Positions 1,579 to 15,594 of a DNA stretch of 32,402 nucleotides are shown one piece after another. The stretch comes from Frankia nepalensis (GTDB lineage Bacteria; Actinomycetota; Actinomycetes; Frankiales; Frankiaceae): the NCBI RefSeq assembly GCF_016786325.1, contig NZ_JADWYU010000088.1:27907-60308 (forward strand), in the 5' to 3' direction. The notes below the pieces were generated by a model. It saw nothing but the letters and a program-made list of their open reading frames with translations, had not been told where the DNA came from and searched no databases. Every line of letters starts with the position of its first letter. Position 1 is the stretch's first letter. The translations under genes and the position numbers were made by a program.

Positions 1579-1841
1579 CGGGTGGTCCCGCGCTGCTCGA
1601 CGAGGCGGCCCGCCGTCACCGAGCCGAGAAAGCCCAACAGCGCGACCACGCCGAGCAGCGCGATGTTCCAGCCTTCCCGGTACATCGCGATGTCGACCGC
1701 CACCCCGCAGACGAGCAGCACGACGAGCACGTCGAGCGCGACGACGCGGTCCAGGTTCGTCGGGCCGCGCACCGCCCGGTCCAGCGTGAGCAGGCCCGCG
1801 ACGCCGAGCAGCGCCAGCGTGACGCCGTAGATGATGCTCAT
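1575..1841 (-). CDS. mnhF: Na+/H+ antiporter subunit F (MnhF/MrpF)
   Basis: An 88-residue protein with three predicted membrane helices (about 4-20, 35-51 and 58-77). The sequence RAVRGPTNLDRVVALD after helix 1 is the hallmark of MrpF. Length is normal for the family. The ATG at 1841 overlaps the mnhE stop as ATGA and its own stop overlaps the mnhG start in the same way. A longer reading frame runs through this region from further upstream, but that extension is the out-of-frame shadow of mnhE and has no membrane character. The role is as a structural subunit of the Mrp Na+/H+ antiporter. Confidence 0.93.
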   Translation of the reverse strand: MSIIYGVTLALLGVAGLLTLDRAVRGPTNLDRVVALDVLVVLLVCGVAVDIAMYREGWNIALLGVVALLGFLGSVTAGRLVEQRGTTR

Positions 1842-2527
1842 CGGCCCTTCCCTTCCGGCTCGAACGGCCCGGCCGGACGTTCGTGGTGATCTGGTTCCTC
1901 GGGGTGTCCCGACGTGACCGGCCGGTCCGGGTGGTCCGAGCGGCTGGGGCGGTCCGGCTGGGCGGGGCGGTCCGGTTGGTCGGGGAACGCCCTGATCACC
2001 CTGCGCTGCAGGCCGTCGATCCTGGCGCGCGCGCTCTCGACCGCCTCCGGCCCGCCGGAGGTGAGCATGTGGACGTAGAACACCCCGGCGTCGCGGTCGA
2101 CCTCGAGGACCGACGAGCCGGGCGCCAGCGAGACCGCGTGGGCGACCAGCGTCGAGACCACCTCGGAACGGGTGCGCAGCGGAACGGCGATGATCGCCGA
2201 CGGGGTGGCCGGACCAAACCTGATCATCTGCGTGGCGACCTTGAGGCTGGACGGAACCAGGTCGGCGATCAGGTAGGCGCCCAGCGCCAGCGCCCACGGC
2301 GGGCGGATGCGCGGGGCGCGCGAGGCGGCGCCGAGCGGCCGGAGCGGGAAGGCCGCGAGCACCGTGGCCGCGACGGCCACGCCGCTGAGCGCGACGAGCC
2401 CGTTCACCCGCCCCCACAGCAGCACCCAGACCAGCCACAGCCAGGCCAGCTGGGCCGGGCGCCGGGTGATCCGGGCGGCTCCGCCCGCCCGCGCCTGGCC
2501 GCCGGCGGGCGCGGGCGAGCCGGTCAC
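1838..2527 (-). CDS. mnhE: Na+/H+ antiporter subunit E (MnhE/MrpE) with long charged tail
   Basis: A 229-residue protein that starts at GTG 2527, overlapping the mnhD stop as GTGA. Two to three membrane segments lie at about 27-65 and 76-92, followed by the MrpE features VPSSLKVATQMI and PLRTRSEVVSTLVAHAVSLAPGS, then a beta-rich cytoplasmic domain with VDRDAGVFYVHML. Usual MrpE proteins are about 160 residues; here the extra length is a C-terminal tail from about residue 182 made of repeating PDR/PDQ/PSR triplets rich in Pro, Asp, Arg and His. The tail is encoded by a degenerate repeat at 1919-1984 and is probably disordered. Role: assembly or stability subunit of the Mrp antiporter. Confidence 0.92.
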   Translation of the reverse strand: MTGSPAPAGGQARAGGAARITRRPAQLAWLWLVWVLLWGRVNGLVALSGVAVAATVLAAFPLRPLGAASRAPRIRPPWALALGAYLIADLVPSSLKVATQMIRFGPATPSAIIAVPLRTRSEVVSTLVAHAVSLAPGSSVLEVDRDAGVFYVHMLTSGGPEAVESARARIDGLQRRVIRAFPDQPDRPAQPDRPSRSDHPDRPVTSGHPEEPDHHERPAGPFEPEGKGR

Positions 2528-4068
2528 CGGCCACCCCCCGCGCCCGCCGCCGGAAGGACGACATCCTGGTAGACCGTGGGGCGCAGGACGTCCTCGGCTG
2601 CCCGGCCGGTCAGGCCGGCCAGCGGGCCGGCGAACACCGTGAGCGCGACGCCCGCGGCGACCAGCCCCGCCGTCGCGGCGATCATCGGGCGGCGGACGGT
2701 GGCCGGGTTGGCCGGCGCGGCGCCGGGCGGCTCCGGGTCGGGCGACGCGGGCCGGGGCCGCCGCCAGAACGCGAACACCCACACCCGGACCATCGCGTAC
2801 AACGTCAGCAGGCTGGCGGCGAGCATCGCGGCGATGGCCAGGTAGGCGGCGACGCCGCCGGCCCGCGAGCCGGCCTGGAGCAGGGCGAGCTTCGCGACGA
2901 AGCCGGACAGTGGCGGCACCCCGGCGAGGCTCAGCGCCGGAACGGCGAACAGCACAGCCACCACCGGGGCCGCGGCGGCGAGGCCGCCGGCGCGGCGTGG
3001 CACCGACGTGCCCGCGTACCCGGCGACGAGACCGCCGACGAGAAACAGCGTCGCCTGGGTCAGGATGTGATGGACCATGTAAAGGATCACGCCGGACAGG
3101 CCGATCGCGGTGAACAGCGACAGCCCGAACAGCATGTACCCGATGTGGCTGACGAGCAGGAACGACAGCATCCGGTTCAGGTCCTCCTGGGCGATCGCGC
3201 CGAGCGCGCCGACCAGCAGGGTCAGGACGGCGACGCCGAGCAGCAGCAGCCAGGTCCCGTCGTGGGAGAACACCAGGGTGTGCGTCCGGATCAGCGCGTA
3301 CACGCCGACCTTGGTGAGCAGCGCGGCGAGCACGGCCGTGATCGGAGCGGGCGCCGTCGGGTAGCTGTCCGGGAGCCAGAAGTGCAACGGCACCGCCGCC
3401 GCCTTGATCCCGAAGACGACCAGGACGAGCAGGCCCAGCGCGGCGCGCAGCCCGTCCGGCAGGCCGCCGACCTCGCGGGCCAGGTCGGCGAGGTTGACCG
3501 TGCCGGTGGCGGCGTACACCAGCGCGATCATCGTCAGGAACAGCAGCGACGAGGTGAGACTGACGATCACGTATGTCATCCCCGCCCTGATCCGGGAGGC
3601 CGTCGTGCCGAGCGTGATCAGGACGTAGGACGAGACGAGCATGAGCTCGAAGGCGACGAACAGGTTGAACAGGTCCGCGGTCAGATAGGCCAGCGCGACG
3701 CCGGCGACGAGGCACAGGTAGACGGCCGTGAAGATCGTGTTGTCGCCGCGGGAGGTGTCCCTGGTGGCGCCCTGCCCGACGGCGTAGCAGAACACCGCGA
3801 ACGTCACGACGTCCGAGACGAGCAGCAGCAGCGCCGAGAGGCGGTCCGCGACCAGGGTGACCCCGATGGGCGCCGGCCACCCACCCAGGTTCGCGGCGAT
3901 CGGCCCGCCGGTGTCGGTGAGGACGACCAGCGCGGCCGAGTCGGCCGCCATCGCGCCGATCACGGCCAGGGCGAGCAGTCGCTGGGCACGGGGGTGGCGG
4001 CGCAGCACGAGGATCACGCCGGCGGCCAGCAGCGGAGCGATCATCGGCAGGACGACCAGAATGCTCAC
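2524..4068 (-). CDS. mnhD: Na+/H+ antiporter subunit D (MnhD/MrpD)
   Basis: A 514-residue polytopic membrane protein of the proton-translocating NuoL/M/N-like family. Start is GTG 4068, overlapping the mnhC stop. Helix-embedded residues expected in MrpD are present: E141 in FVAFELMLVSSY, K222 in VVFGIKAAAVPLHFWLPDSY, and K253 in LAALLTKVGVYALIR. H-rich MVHHILTQATLF lies in the later half, as in complex I antiporter-like subunits. A loop of Pro/Ala/Glu between the late helices (about residues 435-455) is the only low-complexity stretch. Together with MnhA it should form the ion- and proton-conducting core of the Mrp complex. Confidence 0.95.
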   Translation of the reverse strand: MSILVVLPMIAPLLAAGVILVLRRHPRAQRLLALAVIGAMAADSAALVVLTDTGGPIAANLGGWPAPIGVTLVADRLSALLLLVSDVVTFAVFCYAVGQGATRDTSRGDNTIFTAVYLCLVAGVALAYLTADLFNLFVAFELMLVSSYVLITLGTTASRIRAGMTYVIVSLTSSLLFLTMIALVYAATGTVNLADLAREVGGLPDGLRAALGLLVLVVFGIKAAAVPLHFWLPDSYPTAPAPITAVLAALLTKVGVYALIRTHTLVFSHDGTWLLLLGVAVLTLLVGALGAIAQEDLNRMLSFLLVSHIGYMLFGLSLFTAIGLSGVILYMVHHILTQATLFLVGGLVAGYAGTSVPRRAGGLAAAAPVVAVLFAVPALSLAGVPPLSGFVAKLALLQAGSRAGGVAAYLAIAAMLAASLLTLYAMVRVWVFAFWRRPRPASPDPEPPGAAPANPATVRRPMIAATAGLVAAGVALTVFAGPLAGLTGRAAEDVLRPTVYQDVVLPAAGAGGGR

Positions 4069-4694
4069 GGGGTGCTCCCCTCCGGGTGATCCGGGCCGCG
4101 GGCGGGGCCCGCGCCCCGCCTGGCGGCCTGGGTCGGCTGCCCTTCCTCCTCGTCCCGCGCCCCGTCCGTCTCGGCGCCGTCCGTCTCGGCGCCGTCCGTT
4201 TCGCCGACGGCCGTTTCGGAACCGTCTGTCTCGGCGCTGTCCTGTTCGGTGTCCGTCTGTTCGGTGCCTGTCTGTTCGGCGTCCGTCTGTTCGGGGTCGG
4301 TGGTCGTTCCCCGGTGCGCGCTGAGGTCCCGCTGGAGCCGGACGATCCGGGCGTCCTCGACGTCGTCGCGCACCTCGTCGTCGCCGAGCAGGGTCCACGA
4401 CCGGTAGGCCAGGGCGAGCAGGAACGTCGTCAGCGCGAACGTGATGACGATCGAGGTGAGCGCCATCCCCTGCGGCAGCGGGTTGGACATCTGCTCGGGC
4501 GCGGACGTGCCGACCATCGGCGCCCGGCCGCTGCGCCCGCCGACGAGCAGCAGGAGCAGGTTCGTGGCATGGCCGAGCAGCACGATCCCGATGAGGATCC
4601 GCATCAGCGACCGTTGCAGCAGGAGGTAGGTCCCGGCGGTGAACAGCCCGCCGACGACGGCGGCGGACGTGAGGTTGAGCGCCGTCGGGGTCAT
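4065..4694 (-). CDS. mnhC: Na+/H+ antiporter subunit C (MnhC/MrpC) with acidic repeat tail
   Basis: A 209-residue protein. Residues 1-105 are a normal MrpC/NuoK-like subunit with three helices (about 9-26, 31-51 and 77-97) and the family pattern LMRILIGIVLLGHATNLLLL. MrpC is usually about 110-120 residues. Here a highly acidic cytoplasmic tail of about 100 residues follows, with near-perfect five-residue repeats (EQTD-x and ETDGA) at residues 133-180. The ATG at 4694 overlaps the mnhA stop as ATGA. The tail is likely disordered and negatively charged; a role in cation attraction or partner binding would be guesswork. The core assignment is secure. Confidence 0.94.
   Translation of the reverse strand: MTPTALNLTSAAVVGGLFTAGTYLLLQRSLMRILIGIVLLGHATNLLLLLVGGRSGRAPMVGTSAPEQMSNPLPQGMALTSIVITFALTTFLLALAYRSWTLLGDDEVRDDVEDARIVRLQRDLSAHRGTTTDPEQTDAEQTGTEQTDTEQDSAETDGSETAVGETDGAETDGAETDGARDEEEGQPTQAARRGAGPARGPDHPEGSTP
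4155..4298 (-). repeat. 15-bp in-frame tandem repeat in mnhC
   Basis: Degenerate and partly perfect 15-bp units, for example GTCCGTCTCGGCGCC on the plus strand, encode the EQTD-x and ETDGA repeats of the MnhC tail. The period is a multiple of three, so copy-number change would not break the frame. Confidence 0.85.
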
Positions 4695-7600
4695 CGGTCC
4701 GAACCCGTCGACGCGCGGCCCAGTTCCGCCCTCGCTCCCGGCCCCGGGATCGGGACCGGGCCGGCGAGCACCGCATGGTCGCGATCGCCGGTCTCCGCGT
4801 CCACCACCGGTTCGGGCGGCAGGAACGCCTCCTTGTCGACGCCGGTGCCGAGCGTGCGCAGCAGCTCGAGCACCACGCCGGTGATCAGCAGATAGACCCC
4901 GACGTCGAAGAACAGGCTGGTCACCAGCTCGACATGGCCGAGCACTGGGAGGTCTCCCTTGAAGACGTAGCTCTCCAGAACCGCGCCGCCGAACACCGTC
5001 GGCGCGAGGCCCGCGAGCGTCGCGGTGAGCAGGCCGGCGCCGATCACCACCGTCGGCGCGACGGGCACCGCCGCGCCGACCTGCCGGCGGCCGCCGGCGA
5101 CATAGCGCAGGACGAAGGCGAAGCCGGCGACCAGCCCCCCGGAGAAGCCGCCGCCGGTGCGGGTGTGCCCGGCGAACAGCAGGTACAGCGAGAAGACGAG
5201 GACGACCGGGAACAGGGCCCGGGTGGTGACCTCGAGCAGCACCGACCCGCGGACCGGGCCGGCGTCGCGGCTGGCACCAGGCGAAGGCCGCCCGGCGCCG
5301 GCCGGCTCCGTCTCGCCGCCCGCCGCCGGGCGCGGCTCGGTGACCGTCCCGGCCGAAAGCAGATCGGCGGGCGGCGGCTCGTCGGCCACGGAACCGGCCA
5401 CGGCGGAGGCCGGCTCGGCGCGCCGGCGCGGCACCCCACCGTCGTGGGCGCGGAACGCGGCGGCGTCCGCGGCCGCGGACGGGCCGCGGGCGATCAGCAG
5501 GCTGGCGACACCGAGCGCGGCGACCGCCAGGACGGAGATCTCCCCGAGCGTGTCGAGTGCCCGGAAGTCGATGATGATGGCGTTCACGACGTTCGTCGCC
5601 CCGGTCTGCGCCGGCGAACGGGCGATGTACTCGGCGCTCACCTTGCTCGGCTCCGTCTGGGCGGCGGTGGTGGCGACCGCGAACACGGCGACCAACGTCC
5701 CGACCGCCAAGGCGACCAGGATCCGCGGCCAGCGGAGCACCCGAGGGCGGTCGGCGGTCGAGAACCGCGTCGGCATCCGGCGCAGCACGAAGACGAAGGC
5801 GATGAGCGAGAGCGACTCGACGAGGAACTGCGCGAGCGCGAGGTCGGGGGCGCCGTCAACGACGAACAGCCCACCGATCCCGTAGCCCACGCCGCCGAGC
5901 AGCAGCGCGGCCGTCAGCCGGCTACGCGCCCGCGCCGCGCCGAACGCGCAGCAGAGCACGATCGTGGCCAGCGGCAGCTGGATGGCGTAGTCCCAGGCGT
6001 GTACCTCGGTCGGCCAGGACCCGCCCGCGAGCAGCGCGGCTCCCGGGACCGCCAGCACCACCAGCATGATCACGCCGAGGTAGACCGGGAGGGAGCCGAT
6101 CTGCGTGCGCGCGGCGACCGCCATCGCGAGCCGGTCGACGGCCGCGGCGCCCGGCCCCTCACCGCCGGACCGTGAACCGGGCCGCGAGCCGCGCGGCCAC
6201 GGCGCGCGCCACCCGGCGCCCGCGCCGAGGCGCGCCTCGAGGGCGCGCGCGCCGGCGAAGAGCGCGCAGCCGCCGGCGAGCGCGCCGGCGGACAGCGCGA
6301 GCGCCGCGCCGGGCCCGTGCCACAGCGCCAGGTGGTAGCGCCCGTCCGGGCTTGGCGCGTAGGCGTCGGCGTAGCCGGCGGCCAGCGCGTCGACGGCCGC
6401 CGGCGCGAGACCCAGGGCCAGCCCGGCGGCGGCGAGCAGCAGCGCCGGGGCGGTGAACATCGGGCTCGCCGGCGCGAGCGGCGTCGGCGGCACGCCGTCC
6501 TTCGTCGCGAACGCGCCCCACAGGAGCCGCAGCGTGTAGCCGGTCGTCAGCGCGGCGCCAACGACCAGCACGGCCAGCGGCGCGAGCCCGGAGTCGTGCC
6601 AGAACGCCTCGAACGCCGCCTCCTTGCCGAGGAAGCCGACGAACGGCGGCAGCCCGGCCATCGAGCCCGCCGCGAGCAGAGCGGCGGCCGTCAGCAGGGG
6701 AGCGCGCCGCCCGACGCCGGACAGCGCGCGCAGGTCGCGCGTCCCGGCCCGGTGGTCCACGACGCCAACGATCATGAACAGTGTGGCCTTGAACAGGGCG
6801 TGCGCGAGGATCATCGCCGCCCCGGCGAGCGCGGCCGTCCGGGTACCGAAGCCGACCAGTGCCACGAGGAAGCCGAGTTGGCTGACCGTGCCGAACGCGA
6901 GCAGCCGCTTGAGGTCGGTCGCCGCGAGCGCCCGCACCCCGCCGACGACCATCGTCGCCGCGCCGAGCGCGACCGCCGGGATCCGCCAGCCGGGCACGGT
7001 GGCGAACGCCGGCGTCAGCGTCGCGACGAGGAACACGCCGGCCTTCACCATGGCCGCGGCGTGCAGGTAGGCGCTCACCGGCGTCGGCGCGACCATCGCC
7101 GCTGGCAGCCACGACGAGAACGGCGCCAGCGCCGACTTGCTGGCCGCGCCGACGAGGACGAGTGCCAGGGCCGCGACGACCGGGCCGTCGGCGGCGGGCG
7201 GGTCGGCGACGATGCCCGAGATCCGGTACGTGCCGGCGGCCTCGCCGAGCAGGACGAGACCGGCCAGCATCGCCAGCCCGCCGGCCGTCGTCACCAGCAG
7301 CGCCCGCGCCGCGGCCCGCCGGGCCGGCGACGTCCGCCCGCTCCCGCCGATCAGCAGGAACGAGAAGACGGTGGTGAGCTCCCAGAAGACGAACAGGGTC
7401 AGCAGGTCGTCCGCGAGGACCAGCCCGAGCATCGCGCCGGCGAACGCGAGCAGCGCGCCGGCCGACCGGCCGAACCCGTCGCCGTCGTGCGCGTGGTACC
7501 AGCGGGCATAGCAGAACACCAGGGTGCCGACCCCGGTGACCAGCAGCGCCATGAGCAGCGCCAACGGGCTCAGCCGCAGGGCCATGACCAGGTGCAGGTC

Positions 7601-7786
7601 GGGCACCCAGCGCAGGTGGGCCTCCGGCCGGGCCCCGGCGCCGACCGCCGGGACCTGGGTCAGCAGCCAGCCGAAGGTCGCGGCCGGCACCACGGCGCCG
7701 ACGAGGTGGACACGGGCGCCGAGCCGGCCGGCGAGCGTCGGGAGCAGCGCGGCGAGAACGAAGGGGCCGGCTACGGCGGCGAGCAC
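4691..7786 (-). CDS. mnhA: Na+/H+ antiporter subunit A fused to subunit B (MnhAB)
   Basis: A 1031-residue membrane protein, the first gene of the operon. Residues 1 to about 480 form the NuoL-like antiporter domain, with E136 in FVFWELTTVFSFLLIG, K217 in GAASKSALAPFSSWLP and K248 in HAAAMVKAGVFL. A further membrane block (about 560-770) matches the C-terminal MrpA/DUF4040 region. After a Pro/Ala/Glu linker of roughly 65 residues, residues about 849-985 form an MnhB domain (RALFPVVLVFSLYLLFAGHTRTGGGFSGG and a GVYLLITGVVLELL helix). MrpA-MrpB fusions are known in other bacteria. The start is GTG 7786 with GGGAG about 9 nt upstream. All downstream mnh genes overlap by 4 nt, implying one coupled transcript. 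The complex exchanges Na+ (or K+) for protons and supports pH and salt tolerance. Confidence 0.94.
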   Translation of the reverse strand: MLAAVAGPFVLAALLPTLAGRLGARVHLVGAVVPAATFGWLLTQVPAVGAGARPEAHLRWVPDLHLVMALRLSPLALLMALLVTGVGTLVFCYARWYHAHDGDGFGRSAGALLAFAGAMLGLVLADDLLTLFVFWELTTVFSFLLIGGSGRTSPARRAAARALLVTTAGGLAMLAGLVLLGEAAGTYRISGIVADPPAADGPVVAALALVLVGAASKSALAPFSSWLPAAMVAPTPVSAYLHAAAMVKAGVFLVATLTPAFATVPGWRIPAVALGAATMVVGGVRALAATDLKRLLAFGTVSQLGFLVALVGFGTRTAALAGAAMILAHALFKATLFMIVGVVDHRAGTRDLRALSGVGRRAPLLTAAALLAAGSMAGLPPFVGFLGKEAAFEAFWHDSGLAPLAVLVVGAALTTGYTLRLLWGAFATKDGVPPTPLAPASPMFTAPALLLAAAGLALGLAPAAVDALAAGYADAYAPSPDGRYHLALWHGPGAALALSAGALAGGCALFAGARALEARLGAGAGWRAPWPRGSRPGSRSGGEGPGAAAVDRLAMAVAARTQIGSLPVYLGVIMLVVLAVPGAALLAGGSWPTEVHAWDYAIQLPLATIVLCCAFGAARARSRLTAALLLGGVGYGIGGLFVVDGAPDLALAQFLVESLSLIAFVFVLRRMPTRFSTADRPRVLRWPRILVALAVGTLVAVFAVATTAAQTEPSKVSAEYIARSPAQTGATNVVNAIIIDFRALDTLGEISVLAVAALGVASLLIARGPSAAADAAAFRAHDGGVPRRRAEPASAVAGSVADEPPPADLLSAGTVTEPRPAAGGETEPAGAGRPSPGASRDAGPVRGSVLLEVTTRALFPVVLVFSLYLLFAGHTRTGGGFSGGLVAGFAFVLRYVAGGRRQVGAAVPVAPTVVIGAGLLTATLAGLAPTVFGGAVLESYVFKGDLPVLGHVELVTSLFFDVGVYLLITGVVLELLRTLGTGVDKEAFLPPEPVVDAETGDRDHAVLAGPVPIPGPGARAELGRASTGSDR

Positions 7787-8271
7787 GCGGCGCTCCCACG
7801 ATGCCGATCGAGCACGCCCCGGCGCAGCGATCCTGGTGGTCTGAGCCGGCCGTGACCAGGCCTGCCGTAGTCAGCCATGTCTGTCGTCCTTCGGCATCGA
7901 TGTCGAGTTGTGGGCAGTGCGCGGCGATGGCTCCGCGGGCGGTGCGCGGGTCATCGCCGTGTCCGTAGGTGCGCGTCGTGACGGGTGCGTCGTGACCGTG
8001 GCGGGGGAGCGTGCCGTGGTCGTACTGGTCGCTGATCGGGCCGGCGGCGTCGGTGCGCCGCCGGGCGCGCGTGGCTTCGAGCCTCCGCCTGACGGCCGGT
8101 GCGGCCGAGGCGGTAGGCGGGATCCGAGGGAGCCACGAGGAACCGGCCAGGCCACCCATCGTTCTCGGCCAGGCGGACCGGCCGGAGAGACAGCCGCCCA
8201 TGCGGGCTGGCGGTGTGGGTGGTCGCCGTGGGGGCGACGCCGCCATTGTACCTGTTCGTCACGATGTCCCA
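7787..8271. other. Upstream region of the mnh operon, no gene seen
   Basis: No frame here has convincing codon use or a recognisable product; the available frames are Arg/Pro/Ala-rich as expected from random high-GC DNA. It should contain the promoter of the mnh operon on the minus strand, but I see no clear -35/-10 pair and no known riboswitch. Confidence 0.55.
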
Positions 8272-8335
8272 GCGCGGCGGCGCGGCGGCGTGACGGCGCG
8301 GCGGCGCGGCGGCGTGACGGCGTGACGGCGTGACG
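8272..8335. repeat. Tandem 24-bp and 8-bp repeats
   Basis: Two exact 24-bp copies (8272-8295 and 8296-8319), built from GCGCGGCGG-type subunits and ending in GCGTGACG, are followed by two more GCGTGACG octamers (8320-8335). The array directly abuts the 17-bp hairpin at 8341. Confidence 0.85.
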
Positions 8336-8340
8336 GCCGG

Positions 8341-8380
8341 CGACGGCCAGCGGGCTCCCGGCGGAGCCCGCTGGCCGTCG
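8341..8380 (-). terminator. 17-bp hairpin downstream of the small peptide gene
   Basis: A perfect 17-bp inverted repeat (8341-8357 with 8364-8380) with a 6-nt loop lies 65 nt beyond the stop of the secreted peptide gene on the minus strand. No U-run follows. It probably ends the peptide transcript and separates it from the mnh operon. Confidence 0.75.
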
Positions 8381-8407
8381 CGTCCCGGCGTGCCGGCAGG
8401 GCCGCGA

Positions 8408-8428
8408 CCGGTCCCTGGCCGGGACCGG
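8408..8428 (-). terminator. Second hairpin after the small peptide gene
   Basis: CCGGTCCC and GGGACCGG form an 8-bp perfect stem with a 5-nt loop, 17 nt after the stop codon at 8445. Together with the 17-bp hairpin it forms a tandem termination or RNA-stability structure. Confidence 0.6.
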
Positions 8429-8444
8429 CGGACGGCGCGGACCG

Positions 8445-8654
8445 TCAGCAGGTCTCGGCGAACCACTCCAGGAACTCGTGATTGAGGGTTCCACCGCTCG
8501 TGATGACGTGGTACGCCAGCCGGGACGCCAGCCCGCACGCGTAGTCGGGCCGGGCGGCGCTCGCGCTGGACGCGGAGCCGAGCAGCACGACGCCAGTGGT
8601 CGCCACCACCGCGACAGCGGCCGCGCCGGCCTTCACCAGACGATTCCTGAGCAT
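8445..8654 (-). CDS. Small secreted peptide precursor, unknown function
   Basis: A 69-residue precursor. It has a textbook signal peptide: MLRNRLVK positive region, a hydrophobic core of Ala/Val/Leu and a SASSASA-type cleavage site after about residue 33. The predicted mature peptide is about 36 residues, starts ARPDYACG and ends in Cys. Its only two cysteines are C40 (seventh mature residue) and C69 (last residue), so a single disulfide could close nearly the whole peptide into a ring. The ATG at 8654 has a strong AAGGAGA site at ideal spacing, which argues that it is translated. It has its own terminator hairpins. I do not recognise a family; possibilities include a signalling peptide, a bacteriocin-like or surface peptide, or an enzyme-inhibitor-like peptide, none supported by a specific motif. 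Confidence 0.8.
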   Translation of the reverse strand: MLRNRLVKAGAAAVAVVATTGVVLLGSASSASAARPDYACGLASRLAYHVITSGGTLNHEFLEWFAETC

Positions 8655-9314
8655 TCTTTCTCTCCTTCTAGCGGCCTGGGAGAATGATGTCGGCGGGTAG
8701 TTCTCGAATCATCTCCCCTTGAATTTCCGTCCATTCGATGAGACCAGGGGAGGGCCGCCGGAAACCAGTACAGCGGCTGGACCGGCGCTGTCATCAACGC
8801 GTCATCGCGAGCTCGGCGCGCCGGGGCGACCGCGGCGGGCCGGCCGCTTTCGCTTCTATTCGGACGGTCGCCGGGGCGGTGTCCGCCGGAGGCCGGCCGA
8901 GTCCTCAATGCCCACGGCCGGCCCATGGCCGCCGCCGTCGCTCCGATGGGCGGAATCATGCATGTTAGGAACGGAGGATGAGTTTGTGGAAGACAGGCCG
9001 GCGGTCGGCCTCGTAGCCAGATCGGCACCTTTTCAGGTGATTCTCCCATCCTGCGCCGGGCGGTCACGGCAAGCGCCGTGCGAGCCCGCCGGGAACGGTT
9101 CAGCTCTCGGCGTCGCTCTCGGCGATGGCTGGGCCGACGCGCGTCGGACACGACAGATCGGTCAACGTGTGTGGACAGGCGAGGCGCGGTCAGAAGGGAT
9201 TATCTGCCCGAATCGGAATGATCGGAAGCGGTGTCGGCGCGTATTTCCGAGATCTCGACCCGTCATTCAGGTGGATGACTCCCGAGCGCGGGTCGCGAGG
9301 CGAGACTTAGGGGC
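8655..9314. other. Divergent intergenic region, no convincing gene
   Basis: About 660 bases between the peptide gene (minus) and the O-antigen-ligase-like gene (plus). Base composition is less GC-rich at both ends (about 8655-8740 and 9180-9310), fitting promoter DNA. TCGAAT (8704-8709) and ATTCGA (8733-8738) form a loose inverted repeat upstream of the peptide gene. One long open frame crosses the region but has poor codon use and runs into the next gene, so I do not call it. Confidence 0.5.
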
Positions 9315-10793
9315 GTGCGCGCCCCGCTGCCCTGGCACGACCCGTCGCCGGGATCGCTACCCGAGCGTTCCGCCCGTCGACATCGGCGGACGGAGCTGTT
9401 CCTTGTAGTCCCATTGCTGGCCGTCTGCGCGCTTTGCCTGGAGACCTCGGCCGACATCCTGCCGTCCCAGGCGCTGGCGGGCCCGGTCACGCTTGCCCGC
9501 GTGCTCCTGGCGCTGGCATTCGTCGCCCTGATCTTGGCCGGAGCGCGTGGCTCAGACTTCCGTACCGCGCTCGACCCGCCCATAGCGGTCCTGGTGCTCG
9601 CCACGGCGATTTCGACCCACCAGCACACCGACGGCGCGGCGCTGCGTTTTCTCCTCACGGCGGTGGCGTTCTATTACCTCACCGTCGGCCTCGTCCGCTT
9701 CGACCCCGAGGCGAGAGCCGCCCTGCCGCTCCTCGCGCTGGTCGCCGTGGCGATCCCGACGGTCGTCGGCCTGGCCCAGCTCGTGCAGCACGTGCCGACG
9801 ACGTTCTACCGGCGCGGGCTGTTCGGGCCCGTCGACAGCCCGACGCTGGTGCCCGGCCTGCGGACCCGCGCGATCGGCACGTTCACGAACCCGAACCTGC
9901 TGGCGGCCTACCTGCTGCTGCTGGGCCCGTTCGCGGCGCTACCCGCCGTCACCGCGCGGCGGCGTGGGATCCAGGTCGTCGCCGGCAGCCTGGCCCTGCT
10001 CACCTACGCCGGGGTGCTGGTCACCTTCTCCCGGGCGGCCGTCCTGGCCGTGCTCGTCTCCGCCGCCGTGGCCGTCCTGGCCGTACTCGCCCGCCGGCCC
10101 CACGGGCGGCTTCTTTCCCGCGCGGCCGGCCCGGCGTTGGCGATCACCGCGTCGGGGCTGCTGGTGGCGGGCCTGAGCGGAGTGCTCGGTCGGGTGTCCG
10201 GCCGGAGCGAGGCGTTCACGCTCGCTACTCGTGCCCTCGACGGCCATCTCGCCACCGGGGTCGGCCCGCGGCAGGCCGGCGTGGCGATGGACGCGCTCGG
10301 CCACGACGGCCCGTCCTATGCCCACGCCCACGACCTCTGGCTGACCTGGCTGCTGGAGGCGGGCGTGGCGGGCTTCGTGGCCATCGCGCTCGTCACGGTC
10401 GGCGGCCTCGTCGCGGCCGCCAGAACCGCGGCGGCCGGGAGTTCGCTGGGTGTCGCGGGACTCGCCGCGCTGACCGGGTTCTGCGTCATGAGCCTTGTCG
10501 ACAACCCCGCGAACGCCGAGCGCGTGGCGATGAGTCTCTGGCTCGTCCTCGGCCTCGTCATGGCCGACACCCGCCCGGGCTGGCTCAATCCGCGACCCGC
10601 GGACCATCGCGGCCCAGCGGTGATGGGCGGCCGCGCCGGCGACGAGACGGATCTGGCCGCCGTCCCCCACGTCGTCGCCGCCGGCGGACGAGACGACCAC
10701 GGACCGTCGGCGCCCCCGACCATCCCACTCGCCCGGCGGACGCGCGGGCCCGACGCCACATCCGATCATGGACGGCGCGAGCCGTACCGGTGA
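9315..10793 (+). CDS. O-antigen ligase/polymerase-like membrane protein
   Basis: A 492-residue protein with about ten to twelve hydrophobic helices between residues 28 and 418. It carries the typical family signposts: R185-AIGTFTNPNLLAAYLLL, the VTFSRAAVLAV motif with R240, and HAHDLWLTWLLEAG at 337-350, the periplasmic/extracellular loop with the conserved His. The WaaL/Wzy_C family joins or polymerises lipid-linked glycans on the outer face of the membrane. In an actinobacterium the likely product is a cell-surface polysaccharide or glycosylated protein or lipid. The last 70 residues are hydrophilic and poorly conserved in appearance. The start is GTG 9315 after a weak TAGGGG; no glycosyltransferases are nearby, so the substrate cannot be inferred. 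Confidence 0.82.
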   Translation: MRAPLPWHDPSPGSLPERSARRHRRTELFLVVPLLAVCALCLETSADILPSQALAGPVTLARVLLALAFVALILAGARGSDFRTALDPPIAVLVLATAISTHQHTDGAALRFLLTAVAFYYLTVGLVRFDPEARAALPLLALVAVAIPTVVGLAQLVQHVPTTFYRRGLFGPVDSPTLVPGLRTRAIGTFTNPNLLAAYLLLLGPFAALPAVTARRRGIQVVAGSLALLTYAGVLVTFSRAAVLAVLVSAAVAVLAVLARRPHGRLLSRAAGPALAITASGLLVAGLSGVLGRVSGRSEAFTLATRALDGHLATGVGPRQAGVAMDALGHDGPSYAHAHDLWLTWLLEAGVAGFVAIALVTVGGLVAAARTAAAGSSLGVAGLAALTGFCVMSLVDNPANAERVAMSLWLVLGLVMADTRPGWLNPRPADHRGPAVMGGRAGDETDLAAVPHVVAAGGRDDHGPSAPPTIPLARRTRGPDATSDHGRREPYR

Positions 10794-10826
10794 CCCTGGG
10801 CAGCCCGGAGCCGACCTCGACGCCTC

Positions 10827-10876
10827 TTCCTCGCGGGCCTACCCGTGATCGTTCCTCGCGGGCCTACCCGTGATCG
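10827..10876. repeat. Perfect tandem 25-bp duplication
   Basis: Two identical 25-bp copies (10827-10851 and 10852-10876), each beginning TTCCTCGCGGGCC, lie just after the O-antigen-ligase-like gene. The 228-bp gap also has the 10-bp palindrome CGACATGTCG at 10921-10930, a possible regulator site ahead of the MFS gene. Confidence 0.9.
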
Positions 10877-11021
10877 CCGAAGCTCACTGCCGGGCGGGAC
10901 GGGTATGGGTGGCACAAGGGCGACATGTCGGGTTGGCACCAGTGACCGAGGCGTGGATGGCCGGGACGCTGGTGTCTGTGACCACCGATGAAGGGCCCGT
11001 CGTGCCCGCCCGCGCGAACGC

Positions 11022-13055
11022 ATGATCCGGCCGCGTGATGACGCCGACGCGGCGGCGCTGCCGCTGTCGGGCTGGCTGCTGGCGCTCGCCGTGGCGGTCG
11101 CCTTCGCGGACGCCTCGATCGTGGTGCTCGCCGCCCCGGAGTTGCTCGCCGAGTACGACTCGACCGTGTCGGCGGTCTCGTGGGTGGTGACCGGATACAA
11201 CGTCGCGATCGTGCTCGCGGCGCTGCCCGTGTTGCTGCTCGCGCGCCGGCGCGGCTGGCTGGCGTTGACCGCGCTGGGCCTGGTCGTCTTCCTCCTCGCG
11301 TCGCTGGGATGCGCCGTCGCGGGCTCGCTGGGGTCGCTGATCTGGCTGCGCGTCGTCCAGGGGGGTGGCGCGGCCCTGCTGCTCGCCGGCTCGCTCCCGT
11401 TGCTCGCGCGGCTCGCCGGATCGGACCGGGCCGGCCTCGCGGCCTGGTCGGCGGCGGCCGCGGTCGGCGCCGCGCTCGGCCCCGCCGCTGGTGGCCTGCT
11501 GACCGAGATGTTCAACTGGCGGGCGATCTTCATCGTGCAGGCGCCGCTGGCCGCGGCCGCGATCGTGGCACTGCCGCGCGCCGCGCGGGCCGCCGGCCCA
11601 GCCCAGGGCGACCCGGCCGAGCCACGCGCCGCGGCCGGGTCGCCCAGCCCGGCCGGTTGGCCTGGCCCGACCGATCCACTCCGCCCAACCCGCCCCCTTG
11701 GCCCAACCCGCCCCCTTGGCCCGACCCACCCGCCTGGCCCGACCCGCCCTCCCGGCGCGGCCGGTCCGCTCGACCCCGCCAGTCCGCTCGACCCGGCGGG
11801 TGCCGTGGAGGTGCGCTCGTCGCGGCTGGTGGCCGCGCACGCGGCGCTGGCGATGGTCTCGGCGGCGCTGGTCGGCGCGCTGTTCCTCGTCATCCTTCTG
11901 ATGATCAATGGCTGGGGCGCGACGCCGCTGACCGCCGCCGCCGTGGCGACCGTGCTGCCGCTCGGCACCCTCGCCAGCCGCTACGTCACCGCCGGGCGCC
12001 GGCCGCGCACGTTGGCGCTCGCCGGCTGCCTGACCGTCGCCGGGGGACTGGCGAGCCTGGCCGTCGTGCCCGACAAGGGCTGGACGACGGCCGCCGTCGC
12101 GCTGGCCGTGACCGGCTTCGGGCTGGGGCTCGCGGTGCCCACGCTCACCGAGGCGTCCATCCGCACCGGCCCACGCCTGGCCTTCGACGGCACCCTCTCG
12201 GTCGTCGCGCGGCACGTCGGTCTCGTGCTCGCTCTCGCCGCGGTCACCCCGCTGCTGGCCTCCTCACTGGCGACGCGGCTCGACGACGCGGTCGTGGCCG
12301 GCACCGAGGCCGGACTGAGCGAACCCGTCCCGCTGGCCGACAAGGTCTCGCTCGCCCGTTCGCTGGGGGAGGCGCTCGGCGACACACCCGCCGGCGAGCT
12401 CCCTGACCTGGACGCGGTGTTCGCCCAGGTGGCGCCCGATGGCAGCCTCGACGCCCTGGAACACGACCTCTCCGGCATCATCACGACGGCGGTCACCGGC
12501 GCGTTCCGGGACTCGTTCGGGCTGTGCGCCCTGTTCGCGCTCATCGCCCTGGTGCCGGCGTCGCTGATCGGACGAGGGCGGTGGTCGGCACCGCGGGGCC
12601 CCACCCCGCTGCCCGCCCGGCTGGGGCACGCGACCCGGGCGGTCGCCGTCGTCCTCGCGCCCGTGCTGGCGGTCGTCCTCACCGCCTCGACCGTCAGCGC
12701 TGGCGGGCGGGGGACGCTGTCCGTACCCGACCCCTGCGCGACCCAGCCCGCGTTCGCGCTCGGCGGCGCCGACGGCTTCCTGCAGCAGATCGCGCTCGAC
12801 ACTCTGGACGGGGCTGCCTGTGAGCTCGAGACGAGCCGGGCCGCGCTGCTGCTGACACTGCTGCCGGAAAGCGGCCAGCCGCGGCTGGACATCTCGGACA
12901 GCAAACTCACGCGGGGCGTCCGGGAAGGCCTCGAACGCGCCGTCGACCGCCGCGCCGACGACGGGACGATCCCCGGCTGGTCGGCGACGGTGCTGCGGCT
13001 CGCGATCCGCGTCGGCCCGGTCGGCTGGCTGGTGGACCAGCTGCGCGCGGACTGA
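11022..13055 (+). CDS. MFS exporter, DHA2-like, with C-terminal extension
   Basis: A 677-residue transporter. Six helices fill residues 15-185, including WLRVVQGGGAALLLAGSLP and the antiporter motif ALGPAAGGLLTE (151-162) typical of 14-helix drug:H+ antiporters. A cytoplasmic linker (about 187-266) is Pro/Gly-rich with four PT(R/H)P(L/P)G repeats. Further helices follow to about residue 560. The first half carries the clearest family features; two long polar stretches in the second half (about 420-490) are extracytoplasmic loops common in this group. The final 110 residues are a hydrophilic domain with two cysteines (C572, C600), beyond the last helix and not usual for DHA2 proteins. Substrate is unknown; drug or metabolite efflux is the family role. 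No clear ribosome site precedes the ATG, so the start is tentative. Confidence 0.82.
   Translation: MIRPRDDADAAALPLSGWLLALAVAVAFADASIVVLAAPELLAEYDSTVSAVSWVVTGYNVAIVLAALPVLLLARRRGWLALTALGLVVFLLASLGCAVAGSLGSLIWLRVVQGGGAALLLAGSLPLLARLAGSDRAGLAAWSAAAAVGAALGPAAGGLLTEMFNWRAIFIVQAPLAAAAIVALPRAARAAGPAQGDPAEPRAAAGSPSPAGWPGPTDPLRPTRPLGPTRPLGPTHPPGPTRPPGAAGPLDPASPLDPAGAVEVRSSRLVAAHAALAMVSAALVGALFLVILLMINGWGATPLTAAAVATVLPLGTLASRYVTAGRRPRTLALAGCLTVAGGLASLAVVPDKGWTTAAVALAVTGFGLGLAVPTLTEASIRTGPRLAFDGTLSVVARHVGLVLALAAVTPLLASSLATRLDDAVVAGTEAGLSEPVPLADKVSLARSLGEALGDTPAGELPDLDAVFAQVAPDGSLDALEHDLSGIITTAVTGAFRDSFGLCALFALIALVPASLIGRGRWSAPRGPTPLPARLGHATRAVAVVLAPVLAVVLTASTVSAGGRGTLSVPDPCATQPAFALGGADGFLQQIALDTLDGAACELETSRAALLLTLLPESGQPRLDISDSKLTRGVREGLERAVDRRADDGTIPGWSATVLRLAIRVGPVGWLVDQLRAD
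11683..11754 (+). repeat. 18-bp in-frame tandem repeat in the MFS gene
   Basis: Four 18-bp units, the first two identical (GCCCAACCCGCCCCCTTG), encode PT(R/H)P(L/P)G repeats in the central cytoplasmic loop of the transporter. Confidence 0.9.
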
Positions 13056-13119
13056 GCGCCGGTCAGGCACTTCGCGGCGGCCAGCCACTGGTGATCCCGG
13101 TACCAGGCTCGGCGGTGTG

Positions 13120-13713
13120 TCAGCGCGAGGTGCCTTCCCCGCGACCGAGGGCAGCCAGATTCCACCCGTCGGCGATGGCCTGGGCGGCGGCGGCGAGGTC
13201 GTCGACGCCCTTGGCGAGCTCATCGGGCCGGTCGGTGCTCAGGTCGAGGTGGAATCCGTACAGGCTGGAGTCGACGAGCCGGACAACGCGGCCGACTATC
13301 TCCGGCGGTGCTCCGCAGCGGACGAGGTAGTCCCGCAGAGCCCGCACCCACCGCTCGTTCGCCTCTCTGACGATGGTGGCGAAGCGTTCCTGGCCGATCA
13401 AGCCGGTCGCCGCGGCCTGCACGTAGATGTCCGTGCAGCGGTGGAGTGGGTCGGTCTGGACGGCCGTCCACAGGGCGTTGACGCCCTGACGCACTCCGGC
13501 GGCACCAGGAAGCGCGTCGATGGCGGCGACCGCCCGGTCCTCGGCGCGCGTGACGACGGCTGCGACGAGCTCGTCGCGGCTGCCGAAGTGGTAGATGAGC
13601 ATCCGGTCGCTGGTGCCGATCGCCGCGGCGACCGGGCGGAGCGTCAGGCCGATGAGGCCATGTTCGAACACATGGTCGGTGACCTGGTCGAGCAGGTCGT
13701 CTCGGCGCCCCAT
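13120..13713 (-). CDS. TetR-family repressor next to an SMR efflux gene
   Basis: A 197-residue protein from ATG 13713; an in-frame GTG nine bases upstream would add three residues. Residues about 5-50 hold the winged TetR-type helix-turn-helix, with LTLRPVAAAIGTSDRMLIYHFGSRDELVAAV as its core. The remainder is an all-helical ligand-binding and dimerisation domain. It diverges from the SMR gene, and the 88-bp gap holds three near-identical 14-bp palindromes spanning the likely promoters of both genes. The simplest reading is a QacR/EmrR-like arrangement: the repressor blocks its own gene and the pump, and a pumped cationic drug releases it. Effector identity is unknown. Confidence 0.9.
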   Translation of the reverse strand: MGRRDDLLDQVTDHVFEHGLIGLTLRPVAAAIGTSDRMLIYHFGSRDELVAAVVTRAEDRAVAAIDALPGAAGVRQGVNALWTAVQTDPLHRCTDIYVQAAATGLIGQERFATIVREANERWVRALRDYLVRCGAPPEIVGRVVRLVDSSLYGFHLDLSTDRPDELAKGVDDLAAAAQAIADGWNLAALGRGEGTSR

Positions 13714-13733
13714 GAGGCCCACATAGTAGGAGT

Positions 13734-13787
13734 GTAGCGGGCGCTACATCCACGCGTAGCGACCGCTACACTTGTAGCGGTCGCTAC
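13734..13787. promoter_or_regulatory. Three palindromic operators, GTAGCG-N2-CGCTAC
   Basis: Perfect 12-of-14 palindromes at 13734-13747, 13756-13769 and 13774-13787, centres 22 and 18 bp apart. The second and third are mirror copies (GTAGCGACCGCTAC and GTAGCGGTCGCTAC) and together form a perfect 15-bp inverted repeat with a 2-bp spacer. They lie between the divergent TetR and SMR genes, 14 bp before the SMR start, and are almost certainly the binding sites of the adjacent TetR protein. Confidence 0.85.
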
Positions 13788-13801
13788 GTTCGGAGGACGT
13801 C

Positions 13802-14140
13802 ATGCACACAGCGCTCGCCCTGCTCGCCGCCGCGATCGGCAGCGAGGTCGCGGCCTCCGCGCTGCTCCCGCGCGCCGACGGCTTCAAGGACCCGTGGTGG
13901 ACCGCGGTCGTCCTGCTCGGCTACGGCCTTTCCATCTGGCTGCTCGCCCTCGTGGTCCGGACCCTGTCGGTGTCGGTGACCTACGCGATCTGGGCGGGCG
14001 TCGGCACCGCGGTGGTGGCGGTGGTCGGTGTGTTCTTCCTCGGCGAGGCGATGAGCTGGGCCAAGGGCGTCTCGCTCGCGCTCATCATCGCGGGCGTGAT
14101 CGGGCTGAACCTGGTCGGCGGCGCGAAGTCTGTCGCGTAA
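13802..14140 (+). CDS. SMR-family small multidrug efflux protein
   Basis: A 112-residue protein with four helices. It aligns by eye with EmrE/QacC: the membrane-embedded proton/drug-binding glutamate is E15 (AAAIGSEVAASALL), and the second signature is VTYAIWAGVGTA with Y61 and W64. Length is typical. It exports lipophilic cations or related small molecules in exchange for protons, working as an antiparallel or paired dimer in the membrane. The ATG has GGAGG at good spacing. Only one SMR gene is present, so it is probably a homodimer. Expression should be controlled by the divergent TetR repressor through the three operators immediately upstream. A guanidinium exporter is an alternative role; no guanidine riboswitch is visible, which disfavours it. 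Confidence 0.93.
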   Translation: MHTALALLAAAIGSEVAASALLPRADGFKDPWWTAVVLLGYGLSIWLLALVVRTLSVSVTYAIWAGVGTAVVAVVGVFFLGEAMSWAKGVSLALIIAGVIGLNLVGGAKSVA

Positions 14141-14184
14141 GCCGAGATGCGCCCGCCGGATGGCGCGGAGTGGGCCGGTCCGCT

Positions 14185-14227
14185 CTGCCGCGCCCGGCGA
14201 ACGAGGCCCCGTCCGCCGGCGCGGCAG
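14185..14227. terminator. Hairpin between SMR and methyltransferase genes
   Basis: CTGCCGCGCCCGGCG (14185-14199) pairs with CGCCGGCGCGGCAG (14214-14227), 14 bp with one bulged C and a 14-nt loop. It sits between the convergent SMR (plus) and methyltransferase (minus) genes and may terminate both. Confidence 0.6.
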
Positions 14228-14295
14228 ATCGGGCCGGCCGTGACCGAGATCCAGGGCCATCCGGTCTTTCTAGACGTGGAGGCCAGGCGTAATGG

Positions 14296-15036
14296 TCAGC
14301 CCGCCGGGCGCACGGCCCGCACGATCATGGCGTGTGGGTTGGCCAGGTAGTCGTCGAAGAACCCGGGCCCGTACAGGTCCTCGGCGTCCGGCGCGCACTC
14401 CAGCGGGCACCACTCGATCTCGCTGAACCCGCCCGTGGCCAGCACCTCGGTATAGGTCCGCCGGGACCAGTAGCGCAGCTTCAGCGCCATCGGCGGGTCC
14501 GTGGGAATGTTCAGCACGACCTCGTCGCCGTCCGCCGCCGCGCTGGGCCAGTCCAGGCTGAAGCCATACTTCAGGTGGCCGGGGCCGGCCGGATCGAGTT
14601 CCGGGTTCGGGACCAGCGTGACGAAGCGGCCGCCCGGCCTCAGGTTCGCGACCATCCGGGCGCACATCGAGCGCATGTGGTCGGTGTCGGCGGCGTAATG
14701 CAGCAGGTAGGTGGCCGCCACCAGGTCGAACTCGCCCAGCACCGGCATCTCGGCGGCGTCGTGAACGTGGTACTCGATGCCGAGCGGGGCTGCCTGCTCC
14801 GCCTCGCGACCGTGCCGCACCATCTCCGCCGAGGCGTCGACAGCCACCACCCGGGCGGCGCCCAGCTCGGCGAACTGGCGGGAGTAGAAACCTTCCCCGC
14901 AGGCGACGTCGAGCACCGACCTGCCGGCGACCGAACCCAGGTTCCGGAGAAACGAGTAGGACTCGACGCACGTCCGGAAGGCCGTCATATCGGCCTCGGT
15001 GTAGTTGGCCGCCGCCACGTCGTACTGGTTGACCAT
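14296..15036 (-). CDS. Class I SAM-dependent methyltransferase
   Basis: A 246-residue protein. Motif I is VLDVACGEGFYSRQF (41-55), the SAM-binding acidic residue is D67 in VVAVDASAEMV, and FDLVAATYLLHYA with MVANLRPGGRFVTLVPNP gives motifs II-III. This is the Methyltransf_25/11 type of small-molecule methyltransferase. The C-terminal half (KLRYWSRRTYTEVLATGGFSEIEWCPLEC) resembles toxin/biosynthesis-associated stand-alone methyltransferases, but the substrate is unknown. A strong GAGGGGGACGAG site precedes the ATG. A remarkable triple 11-bp direct repeat lies 51-83 bp upstream of the start, suggesting specific activation by an outside regulator. No biosynthetic partners adjoin it. Confidence 0.9.
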   Translation of the reverse strand: MVNQYDVAAANYTEADMTAFRTCVESYSFLRNLGSVAGRSVLDVACGEGFYSRQFAELGAARVVAVDASAEMVRHGREAEQAAPLGIEYHVHDAAEMPVLGEFDLVAATYLLHYAADTDHMRSMCARMVANLRPGGRFVTLVPNPELDPAGPGHLKYGFSLDWPSAAADGDEVVLNIPTDPPMALKLRYWSRRTYTEVLATGGFSEIEWCPLECAPDAEDLYGPGFFDDYLANPHAMIVRAVRPAG

Positions 15037-15086
15037 CTCGTCCCCCTCGCCGCGCCCGTTTCCCGGCGCCAGCTATGTGCCAAACG

Positions 15087-15119
15087 TTTTCGACAAGTTT
15101 GCGACGCGTTTACGACAGG
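15087..15119 (-). promoter_or_regulatory. Three tandem 11-bp direct repeats, TTTNCGACNNG
   Basis: On the plus strand the units are TTTTCGACAAG, TTTGCGACGCG and TTTACGACAGG, exactly adjacent, so one repeat per helical turn. They end 51 bp before the methyltransferase start on the minus strand. Direct repeats with an 11-bp period upstream of -10 regions are the known binding mode of SARP-type activators and of PhoP-like response regulators. No such regulator is encoded in this window, and the consensus differs from the textbook sites I know. Confidence 0.6.
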
Positions 15120-15559
15120 CTTCGGAAAAGGACCGCGGGAACTTCGGCGCCCAGTGTCGTCGCCGAACGTCACAAGTTTCCTTTCCTCTCGTCGCCTCCT
15201 CTCGGAGTCGCCGTCGATGAGATACAGGACACATCCGGAAAATGTGCCAGCGCCCGTCGGGAAGTGCCGGTATCGGAAAGGGCATGCGTACGCGGATCGG
15301 CGTTCGGATCCGTGCGTGGGATCCGCGGAAGGCGCCGTCGTCCCCGCGGGAGGTCAATGCCGGGACGAGTGGTGAACGCCTCGGTCGTGATCAGCCGCCG
15401 GGCGAGCTGTCCGGACCCGCTGGGTTCGTTGAGGAAGAGGTCGGACCGGACGACTCCGAGGACGCGCGGCGGCGGGGCCCGGTCGGGGTCGCGCCCCCGT
15501 TCGCGTTGTCCTGGTCGGCCTCTGCCGGAATGAACAGCCTCGGGGAGTTCCGCGTGTTA

Positions 15560-15575
15560 GCACCCTCGTGGGTGC
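15560..15575 (-). terminator. Possible terminator after the GNAT gene
   Basis: GCACCC and GGGTGC form a 6-bp stem with a TCGT loop, 20 nt beyond the stop of the acetyltransferase gene on the minus strand. It is short and lacks a U-tract. Confidence 0.4.
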
Positions 15576-15594
15576 CTCCTGCCAGGCGAGCCCG

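What the first reader, a model, noticed from the sequence alone, without database searches (positions are those of the whole stretch)
8445..8654. Tiny secreted peptide closed by its last residue
A well-formed signal peptide, strong ribosome site and double terminator support a real gene. The mature part of about 36 residues has just two cysteines, one near the start and one as the final residue, which would give a nearly full-length loop if disulfide-bonded. I recognise no family.
Basis: partly seen in the sequence, partly recalled or inferred. Interest (0 to 1): 0.5.

Follow-up and report, generated by a model that had tools for sequence, protein, structure and literature searches.

The report
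Secreted two-cysteine hairpin peptide
A soil bacterium related to Frankia appears to secrete a 36-residue peptide whose two cysteines, one being its last residue, could clasp it into a two-helix hairpin; similar peptides occur in the same genome and in one related species, and what they do is unknown.

Summary
Window 8448-8654 (- strand) encodes 69 residues: a Sec-type signal peptide, then about 36 mature residues with Cys7 and Cys36, the last residue. There is a strong ribosome site, coding-like GC3, and two very stable hairpins after the stop, though no U-run. 'No family' is only partly right. Direct searches found no homologue, but an own-genome look-alike led to three mutually related peptides of the same build: one in this genome, two in a genome whose contigs sum exactly to Pseudofrankia saprophytica CN3. 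All three also end in Cys. They and the look-alike share an upstream direct repeat (TCACACG-N5-TCACACG); 10 of its 11 sites in eight genus genomes lie in these two. The window gene lacks that repeat, and its sequence link to the group is weak (global shuffle tests 1-5 per 1000, 7-52 per 1000 with cysteines fixed; local alignments and one profile test at or near chance). AlphaFold from the single sequence gives a confident two-helix hairpin (pLDDT 94.7). Most likely it is a Sec-exported, disulfide-locked helical hairpin acting outside the cell, probably on other cells. The nearest working analogue is the gallocin-A-like hairpin bacteriocins, but it fails their leader, partner and immunity tests. 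Function is unproven.

The parts
8445..8654 (-). coding sequence of the 69-aa precursor, with stop codon
8556..8654 (-). signal peptide, residues 1-33 (cleavage ASA|ARP; one residue later is possible)
   Evidence: sequence; rule
8448..8555 (-). mature peptide, 36 residues, net charge -2, predicted helix-loop-helix
   Evidence: (35 of the 36 residues folded)
8535..8537 (-). codon of the first cysteine (mature Cys7)
8448..8450 (-). codon of the second cysteine (mature Cys36, last residue)
8662..8667 (-). ribosome binding site AAGGAG, 7 nt before ATG
8401..8436 (-). first hairpin after the stop codon
8340..8381 (-). second hairpin, 19 bp with 4-nt loop, no U-run after it

Best explanation
The gene makes a precursor that goes out through the Sec pathway. 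After removal of about 33 residues, Cys7 and Cys36 oxidise and lock the peptide as a compact two-helix hairpin, which acts outside the cell as a diffusible ligand, most likely in antagonism or signalling between bacteria. Shown: the open frame with its ribosome site, the signal peptide by anatomy, and the two cysteine positions. Predicted: the hairpin. Inferred: the disulfide, release into the medium, and a target on other cells. It belongs, probably but not certainly, to a small set of two-Cys peptides with terminal Cys in Pseudofrankia.
For: Gene anatomy. AlphaFold of the window's own mature sequence alone (35 of 36 residues): helices 2-18 and 25-34, pLDDT 94.7, five models 91.2-94.7; the cysteines (6 and 35 in that numbering) lie 12 and 10 residues from the helix ends at the turn, so at similar height. 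Three same-build peptides ending in Cys were found by sequence search, not by selecting for Cys. The trio is mutually related: 0 of 1000 shuffles in each of its three pairs. Restricted occurrence: a profile of trio plus window found no further full-length match in 35 family genomes or 393 class genomes, and the window sequence alone matched only its own genome of 393 at E<=0.001.
Against: The window peptide's link to the trio is weak: the full-length trio profile gives it 13.2 bits, reached by 171 of 500 and 227 of 500 shuffles, and local alignments to the trio are reached by 71-386 of 1000 shuffles. It lacks the shared upstream repeat (0 matches). No ABC exporter, partner or immunity gene was seen beside it. 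Net charge is -2, unlike most antimicrobial peptides (recalled). Single-sequence models of short helical peptides can look confident without being right; the Cys-Cys distance was not measured. Searches scored at most 15 first-look candidates per genome, so their negatives are not exhaustive.
Confidence: 0.4

Rival explanations
1. Surface-active or structural peptide of the hyphal or sporangial surface, working by assembly at the cell wall as chaplins do (chaplins recalled).
For: Half the residues hydrophobic and 5 of 36 aromatic; sporangia are recorded for the three Pseudofrankia type strains (Table 2 passage of PMC9680954); the relatives' upstream repeat also precedes two larger secreted proteins.
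Against: No chaplin or other Pfam hit above cut-off. Restricted distribution is odd for a structural part. Helical prediction.
Confidence: 0.2
2. Peptide signal (pheromone) sensed by the same strain or its kin.
For: Small, with a Sec-type signal peptide, closed by one predicted disulfide; divergent versions of the same build in one genus.
Against: No sensor or receptor gene recognised next to it. The other copies lie in unrelated neighbourhoods.
Confidence: 0.2
3. Extracellular inhibitor of an enzyme, for example a protease, using the hairpin as a rigid frame.
For: Small, presumably disulfide-locked frame with variable residues.
Against: No similarity to a solved inhibitor by sequence: 2 hits at E<=10, both antibody chains; no sequence feature points to a reactive loop.
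Confidence: 0.12
4. Chance open frame, not a gene.
For: No convincing orthologue in the 34 other family genomes searched, 7 of them congeners; no consensus promoter.
Against: AAGGAG at right spacing, signal peptide, GC3 0.90, hairpins right after the stop, same-build peptides elsewhere.
Confidence: 0.05

Closest known systems
Gallocin-A-like hairpin subgroup of class IIb bacteriocins (PMC10100652; abstract and passages seen)
   Same: Two cysteines near the two ends of the mature peptide, predicted antiparallel helical hairpin, few positive charges, comparable length (42 and 60 aa there, 36 here).
   Different: Sec-type signal peptide instead of a double-glycine leader with its own ABC transporter; no partner peptide or immunity gene seen beside it; activity unknown; no sequence similarity claimed or tested.
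Glycocins such as sublancin (features recalled; only a search listing seen)
   Same: Short two-helix peptide with an outer cysteine pair spanning almost its whole length.
   Different: Five cysteines, a glycosylated residue and dedicated modification genes there; two cysteines here.
Chaplins (recalled)
   Same: Sec-exported small peptides of filamentous actinobacteria, some with one cysteine pair.
   Different: No profile hit; helical rather than beta prediction.
The trio of peptides L108, L109, L110, in a genome matching Pseudofrankia saprophytica CN3 (two) and in the window's genome (one)
   Same: 69-71 aa, Sec-type signal peptide, [RK]P at or one residue after the cleavage site, first Cys 5-7 residues in, Cys as last residue.
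   Different: The trio has the upstream TCACACG-N5-TCACACG repeat and clear mutual similarity; the window peptide lacks the repeat and is only weakly similar.

Membership tests
Class IIb hairpin bacteriocins (gallocin A subgroup) | Two cysteines close to the N and C ends of the mature peptide | tested here: met
   Cys7 and Cys36 of 36
Class IIb hairpin bacteriocins (gallocin A subgroup) | Antiparallel helical hairpin | tested here: met
   Prediction only: helices 2-18 and 25-34, pLDDT 94.7
Class IIb hairpin bacteriocins (gallocin A subgroup) | Double-glycine leader and dedicated ABC exporter | tested here: not met
   Sec-type signal peptide ending ASA; no ABC exporter among the genes called at window 4000-16000
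Class IIb hairpin bacteriocins (gallocin A subgroup) | Adjacent partner peptide and immunity gene | tested here: not met
   Nearest called genes are an Mrp-type antiporter gene about 660 nt away (recognised by eye; the MnhG subunit of the same cluster is a Pfam hit) and an O-antigen-ligase-like gene
Class IIb hairpin bacteriocins (gallocin A subgroup) | Intramolecular disulfide and antibacterial activity | not testable with these tools
   Needs mass spectrometry and assays
Pseudofrankia terminal-Cys peptides (trio L108, L109, L110) | Signal peptide, 69-71 aa, two mature cysteines, last residue Cys | tested here: met
Pseudofrankia terminal-Cys peptides (trio L108, L109, L110) | Sequence similarity beyond composition and cysteines | tested here: inconclusive
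   Global alignment to L110, L108, L109: 3, 1, 5 of 1000 shuffles, but 51, 27, 52 of 1000 with Cys fixed; local 267, 71, 386 of 1000. Trio profile, mature only: 10 of 500 and, Cys fixed, 16 of 500 (453 and 472 of them scored); full length: 171 and 227 of 500
Pseudofrankia terminal-Cys peptides (trio L108, L109, L110) | Upstream TCACACG-N5-TCACACG repeat | tested here: not met
   0 matches with up to 3 mismatches in the window
Chaplins | Match to the chaplin profile | tested here: not met
   Pfam scans: no such hit at E<=1 or, for the mature part, E<=10

The most novel reading that the evidence does not exclude
Pseudofrankia carries a fast-diverging, strain-specific set of Sec-exported, single-disulfide helical-hairpin peptides closed by the last residue. 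Most are switched, together with larger secreted proteins, by a dedicated direct-repeat operator, and they act on other cells. The window peptide is a member that has escaped that operator.
Probability: 0.25. Interest if true: 0.6.

Novelty: new variant of a known kind. Interest (0 to 1): 0.4.

Why it matters
Tiny secreted peptides are easily missed by annotation and by homology search. Here an anatomy-first reading leads to a small peptide set with its own apparent promoter element in a poorly understood branch of Frankia relatives. If the hairpin and a role in interaction hold, it would be a Sec-exported, two-cysteine counterpart to the hairpin bacteriocins, made without the usual exporter or immunity genes alongside, and cheap to test because the mature peptide can be synthesised.

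Tried and rejected
Direct homology: genome contigs, 593 pattern stretches and none confirmed; viral contigs, 600 stretches with the window peptide and 38 with the profile, none confirmed; plasmids and phages by tblastn, no match at E<=1 for the window peptide; plasmids, no match for the contig-11 peptide at E<=0.01 or for L109 at E<=1. Family genomes with the window peptide alone: best non-self E 0.0191 in 35 genomes, on a frame that is not a secreted peptide. Pfam, NCBIfam, PHROGs: nothing above cut-off or E 0.01 for the window peptide; DUF218 (residues 21-58, E 0.019, 15.3 bits against a cut-off of 27.6) and DUF7155 (signal peptide, E 0.28) I take for chance. PADLOC was not searched. PDB by sequence: two antibody chains, chance. 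PDB by fold: 14 matches with E 4.1-9.6, pieces of other, mostly larger helical proteins, uninformative. Rfam: nothing in the window at gathering threshold. Synteny: the neighbouring O-antigen-ligase-like gene was found only in this genome of 35 at E<=1e-10, and by pattern in no genome contig. The nearest Mrp relative (genome G007, 76%) has about 1.1 kb of DNA upstream of the gene on a 4.6-kb contig, and I saw no such peptide among its ORFs of 35 aa or more. A shared promoter between the window gene and the relatives was looked for by pairwise alignment: of four window pairs only the one with L110 exceeded its 300 random sequences, 30.0 against a maximum of 29.0, by a long low-identity alignment that I do not trust; the repeat itself is absent from the window. 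A truncated longer gene was rejected by eye: past the stop lie the hairpins, and the trio ends at Cys too. A peptide in a distant genome (L129, 54 aa, two Cys, PVTCVLFQNP) resembles the trio, E 0.0024 in one of 393 genomes, which is about what chance gives.

Rows dropped: I looked at 19 of the 22 non-self rows (L061, L068, L070 not examined; L060 gave no readable frame because its locus is short). In one search I read 16 loci. In one search I looked at 10 of the 45 non-member rows. In one search I looked at 7 of the 36 rows that lie outside G000 and G003, among them all five with an open frame of 120 aa or less.

Full report
What is there. On the minus strand, 8654 to 8445, lies a 69-codon frame opened by ATG. 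AAGGAG stands 7 nt before the ATG. Third-position GC is 0.90 against 0.65 and 0.57 in positions 1 and 2; three genes nearby (Mrp-type antiporter, ligase-like, MFS-type; the first and last named by eye) show the same third-position excess. Residues 1-33 form a Sec-type signal peptide by anatomy. The remaining 36 residues hold cysteines at 7 and 36, so the last residue is a cysteine. The 118 nt from the stop codon form two strong hairpins (z -7.2, 0 of 200 shuffles as stable), but no U-run follows and the terminator scan does not list them.

Where it comes from. The window lies in contig 346 of a 10.73-Mb assembly. Genomes placed in the same genus include contigs of 8,815,781, of 6,884,336, and of 8,190,446 + 1,788,146 = 9,978,592 bases. 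These equal the lengths of EuI1c, DC12 and CN3 in Table 1 of PMC9680954 (passages seen), so the genus is Pseudofrankia, the former Frankia cluster 4, and G003 is CN3 by length. The window's own strain is not identified.

Direct relatives. None were found by pattern plus tblastn in genome contigs or viral contigs, nor by tblastn in plasmids or phages. At E <= 0.001, of 393 genomes of relatives only the genome itself matched (at most 15 candidates per genome scored).

Indirect relatives. The best own-genome look-alike (contig 11, E 0.079) is an 87-aa secreted peptide with two mature cysteines, the second four residues before the end (L002/L111). Searching 35 family genomes with it gave 22 non-self rows at E <= 0.1. 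Among the 19 that I read were the window peptide (E 0.0199) and three others of 70-71 aa: L110 in this genome (E 0.031), and L108 and L109 in G003 (E 0.015 and 0.032; these two rows cover little beyond the signal peptide). All three have [RK]P at the cleavage site, Cys 5 residues in, and Cys as the last residue. They were not selected for cysteine. A profile of the trio plus the window peptide (A2) recovers its four members in 35 family genomes and, next, the contig-11 peptide at E 4.2e-5 over positions 2-54; of the 45 other rows the best is E 7.2e-4, the signal region of a 553-aa frame. In 393 class-wide genomes no further full-length match appears. There, 33 other genomes give 36 rows at E <= 0.02; none spans the whole model, 24 of them end before position 55 and 31 lie in frames longer than 120 aa. 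The best of them, E 2.3e-6 over positions 2-38 of a 602-aa frame, is stronger than the contig-11 hit, so a signal peptide alone can reach such values and that hit proves little. At most 15 candidates per genome were scored, 150.

How solid is the link. Within the trio it is solid: 0 of 1000 shuffles in each pair, cysteines fixed or not. For the window peptide it is weak. Mature-only global alignment gives 3, 1, 5 and 4 of 1000 shuffles against L110, L108, L109 and L111, but 51, 27, 52 and 7 of 1000 when the cysteines stay in place; local alignments are worse, 267, 71, 386 and 32 of 1000. A profile of the trio without the window scores the full-length window peptide like shuffles (171 and, cysteines fixed, 227 of 500); mature-only 10 and 16 of 500 (453 and 472 scored). 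With L111 added, mature-only is 2 and 2 of 500 (448 and 479 scored), and full-length 2 and 10 of 500. The contig-11 peptide has no significant similarity to the trio in its mature part (52, 576, 848 of 1000) and is tied to it by its upstream element. I therefore call the window peptide a probable, not proven, member.

A shared upstream element. The four relatives carry TCACACG-N5-TCACACG (halves slightly changed in two of them) ending 60, 56, 159 and 64 nt before the starts of L108, L109, L110 and L111 (the L111 start is uncertain). The pattern TCACACGGWTYYTCACACGGC was made from these four, so they match by construction. With up to 3 mismatches over 8 genus genomes it has 7 sites in G000, 3 in G003, 1 in G006 and 0 in the other five; the reversed-pattern control has 1 site in all 8. 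Seven of the 11 sites are new. Two stand 105 and 91 nt before genes for proteins with Sec-type signal peptides: an RTX-repeat protein (Pfam HemolysinCabind, E 2.1e-17) and a 446-aa repeat protein in G003 that I take for RCC1-like from memory. Two stand 178 and 46 nt before 112-aa and 125-aa proteins without signal peptide, the latter in G006 with 3 mismatches. The other three have no convincing gene behind them. Direct repeats spaced by about one helical turn are typical of OmpR-type response regulators (recalled); M. tuberculosis PhoP uses TCACAGC with a strict 4-bp spacer (PMC4832192, passages seen). Here the spacer is 5, so the regulator is unknown. The window has no such site.

Structure. 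AlphaFold on the window's own mature sequence (35 of the 36 residues, no alignment) gives helices 2-18 and 25-34 with mean pLDDT 94.7, pTM 0.62, the five models between 91.2 and 94.7. Residues 6 and 35 (the cysteines) are 12 and 10 residues from the helix ends at the turn, so a disulfide clasping the open end is plausible; the distance was not measured. Fold search finds only chance helical pieces. The relatives were not folded.

What it probably does. Sec export, oxidation outside the cell and a rigid hairpin are the mechanical reading. Role is inference. Anionic or neutral charge (window -2, L110 -3, L108 -2, L109 -3, L111 0), divergence of the mature parts, absence from the other genomes searched within the limits above, and solitary genes in unrelated neighbourhoods suggest a diffusible factor acting on other cells more than a housekeeping part. 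The nearest described working analogue is gallocin A and similar class IIb peptides, with two cysteines near the ends and a predicted disulfide-locked helical hairpin (PMC10100652, abstract and passages seen). Membership fails on leader type, exporter, partner and immunity gene.

Novelty in print. Three full-text searches (8 of 8 papers listed; 6 of 6; 10 of 458) list no paper on such peptides in Frankia relatives by title or abstract start; of the 2008 Frankia secretome paper PMC2266912 I saw passages only. The library lacks most subscription journals, so this is no proof of absence.

Noticed in passing
G000:C147:3771, C11:98767, C339:20414, C345:48787, C88:96336; G003:C1:4527950, 5087579, 5959707: A direct-repeat element TCACACG-N5-TCACACG, before the peptides and before some genes for larger secreted proteins; 10 of its 11 sites in eight Pseudofrankia genomes lie in two of them; regulator unknown.
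   Followed up: partly
window 8272-8335: Six overlapping copies of an 8-nt-step repeat (GCGTGACG / GCGCGGCG) just beyond the second hairpin.
   Followed up: no
window 9315-10793 (+): O-antigen-ligase-like protein (Wzy_C 29.8 bits, just under the cut-off of 31.7) found in none of 34 other family genomes at E<=1e-10; locus seems strain-specific.
   Followed up: partly
window 1207-7786 (-): Mrp-type antiporter cluster (MnhG subunit by Pfam; the rest by eye); the genome has a second copy of the large subunit on contig 88, 71% identical over the searched part, and the closest match to the window copy is in genome G007, 76%.
   Followed up: partly
L129:1498-1662: A 54-aa secreted-looking peptide with two cysteines and a PVTCVLFQNP stretch like the trio's PLTCELLEP, with a ribosome site (AAGGGAG), in a distant actinobacterial genome; the match is at chance level.
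   Followed up: partly
G003:C1:5087579 (L119): 446-aa protein with a signal peptide and repeated WGxNxxGQLG-like units (RCC1-like from memory) behind the shared element.
   Followed up: no
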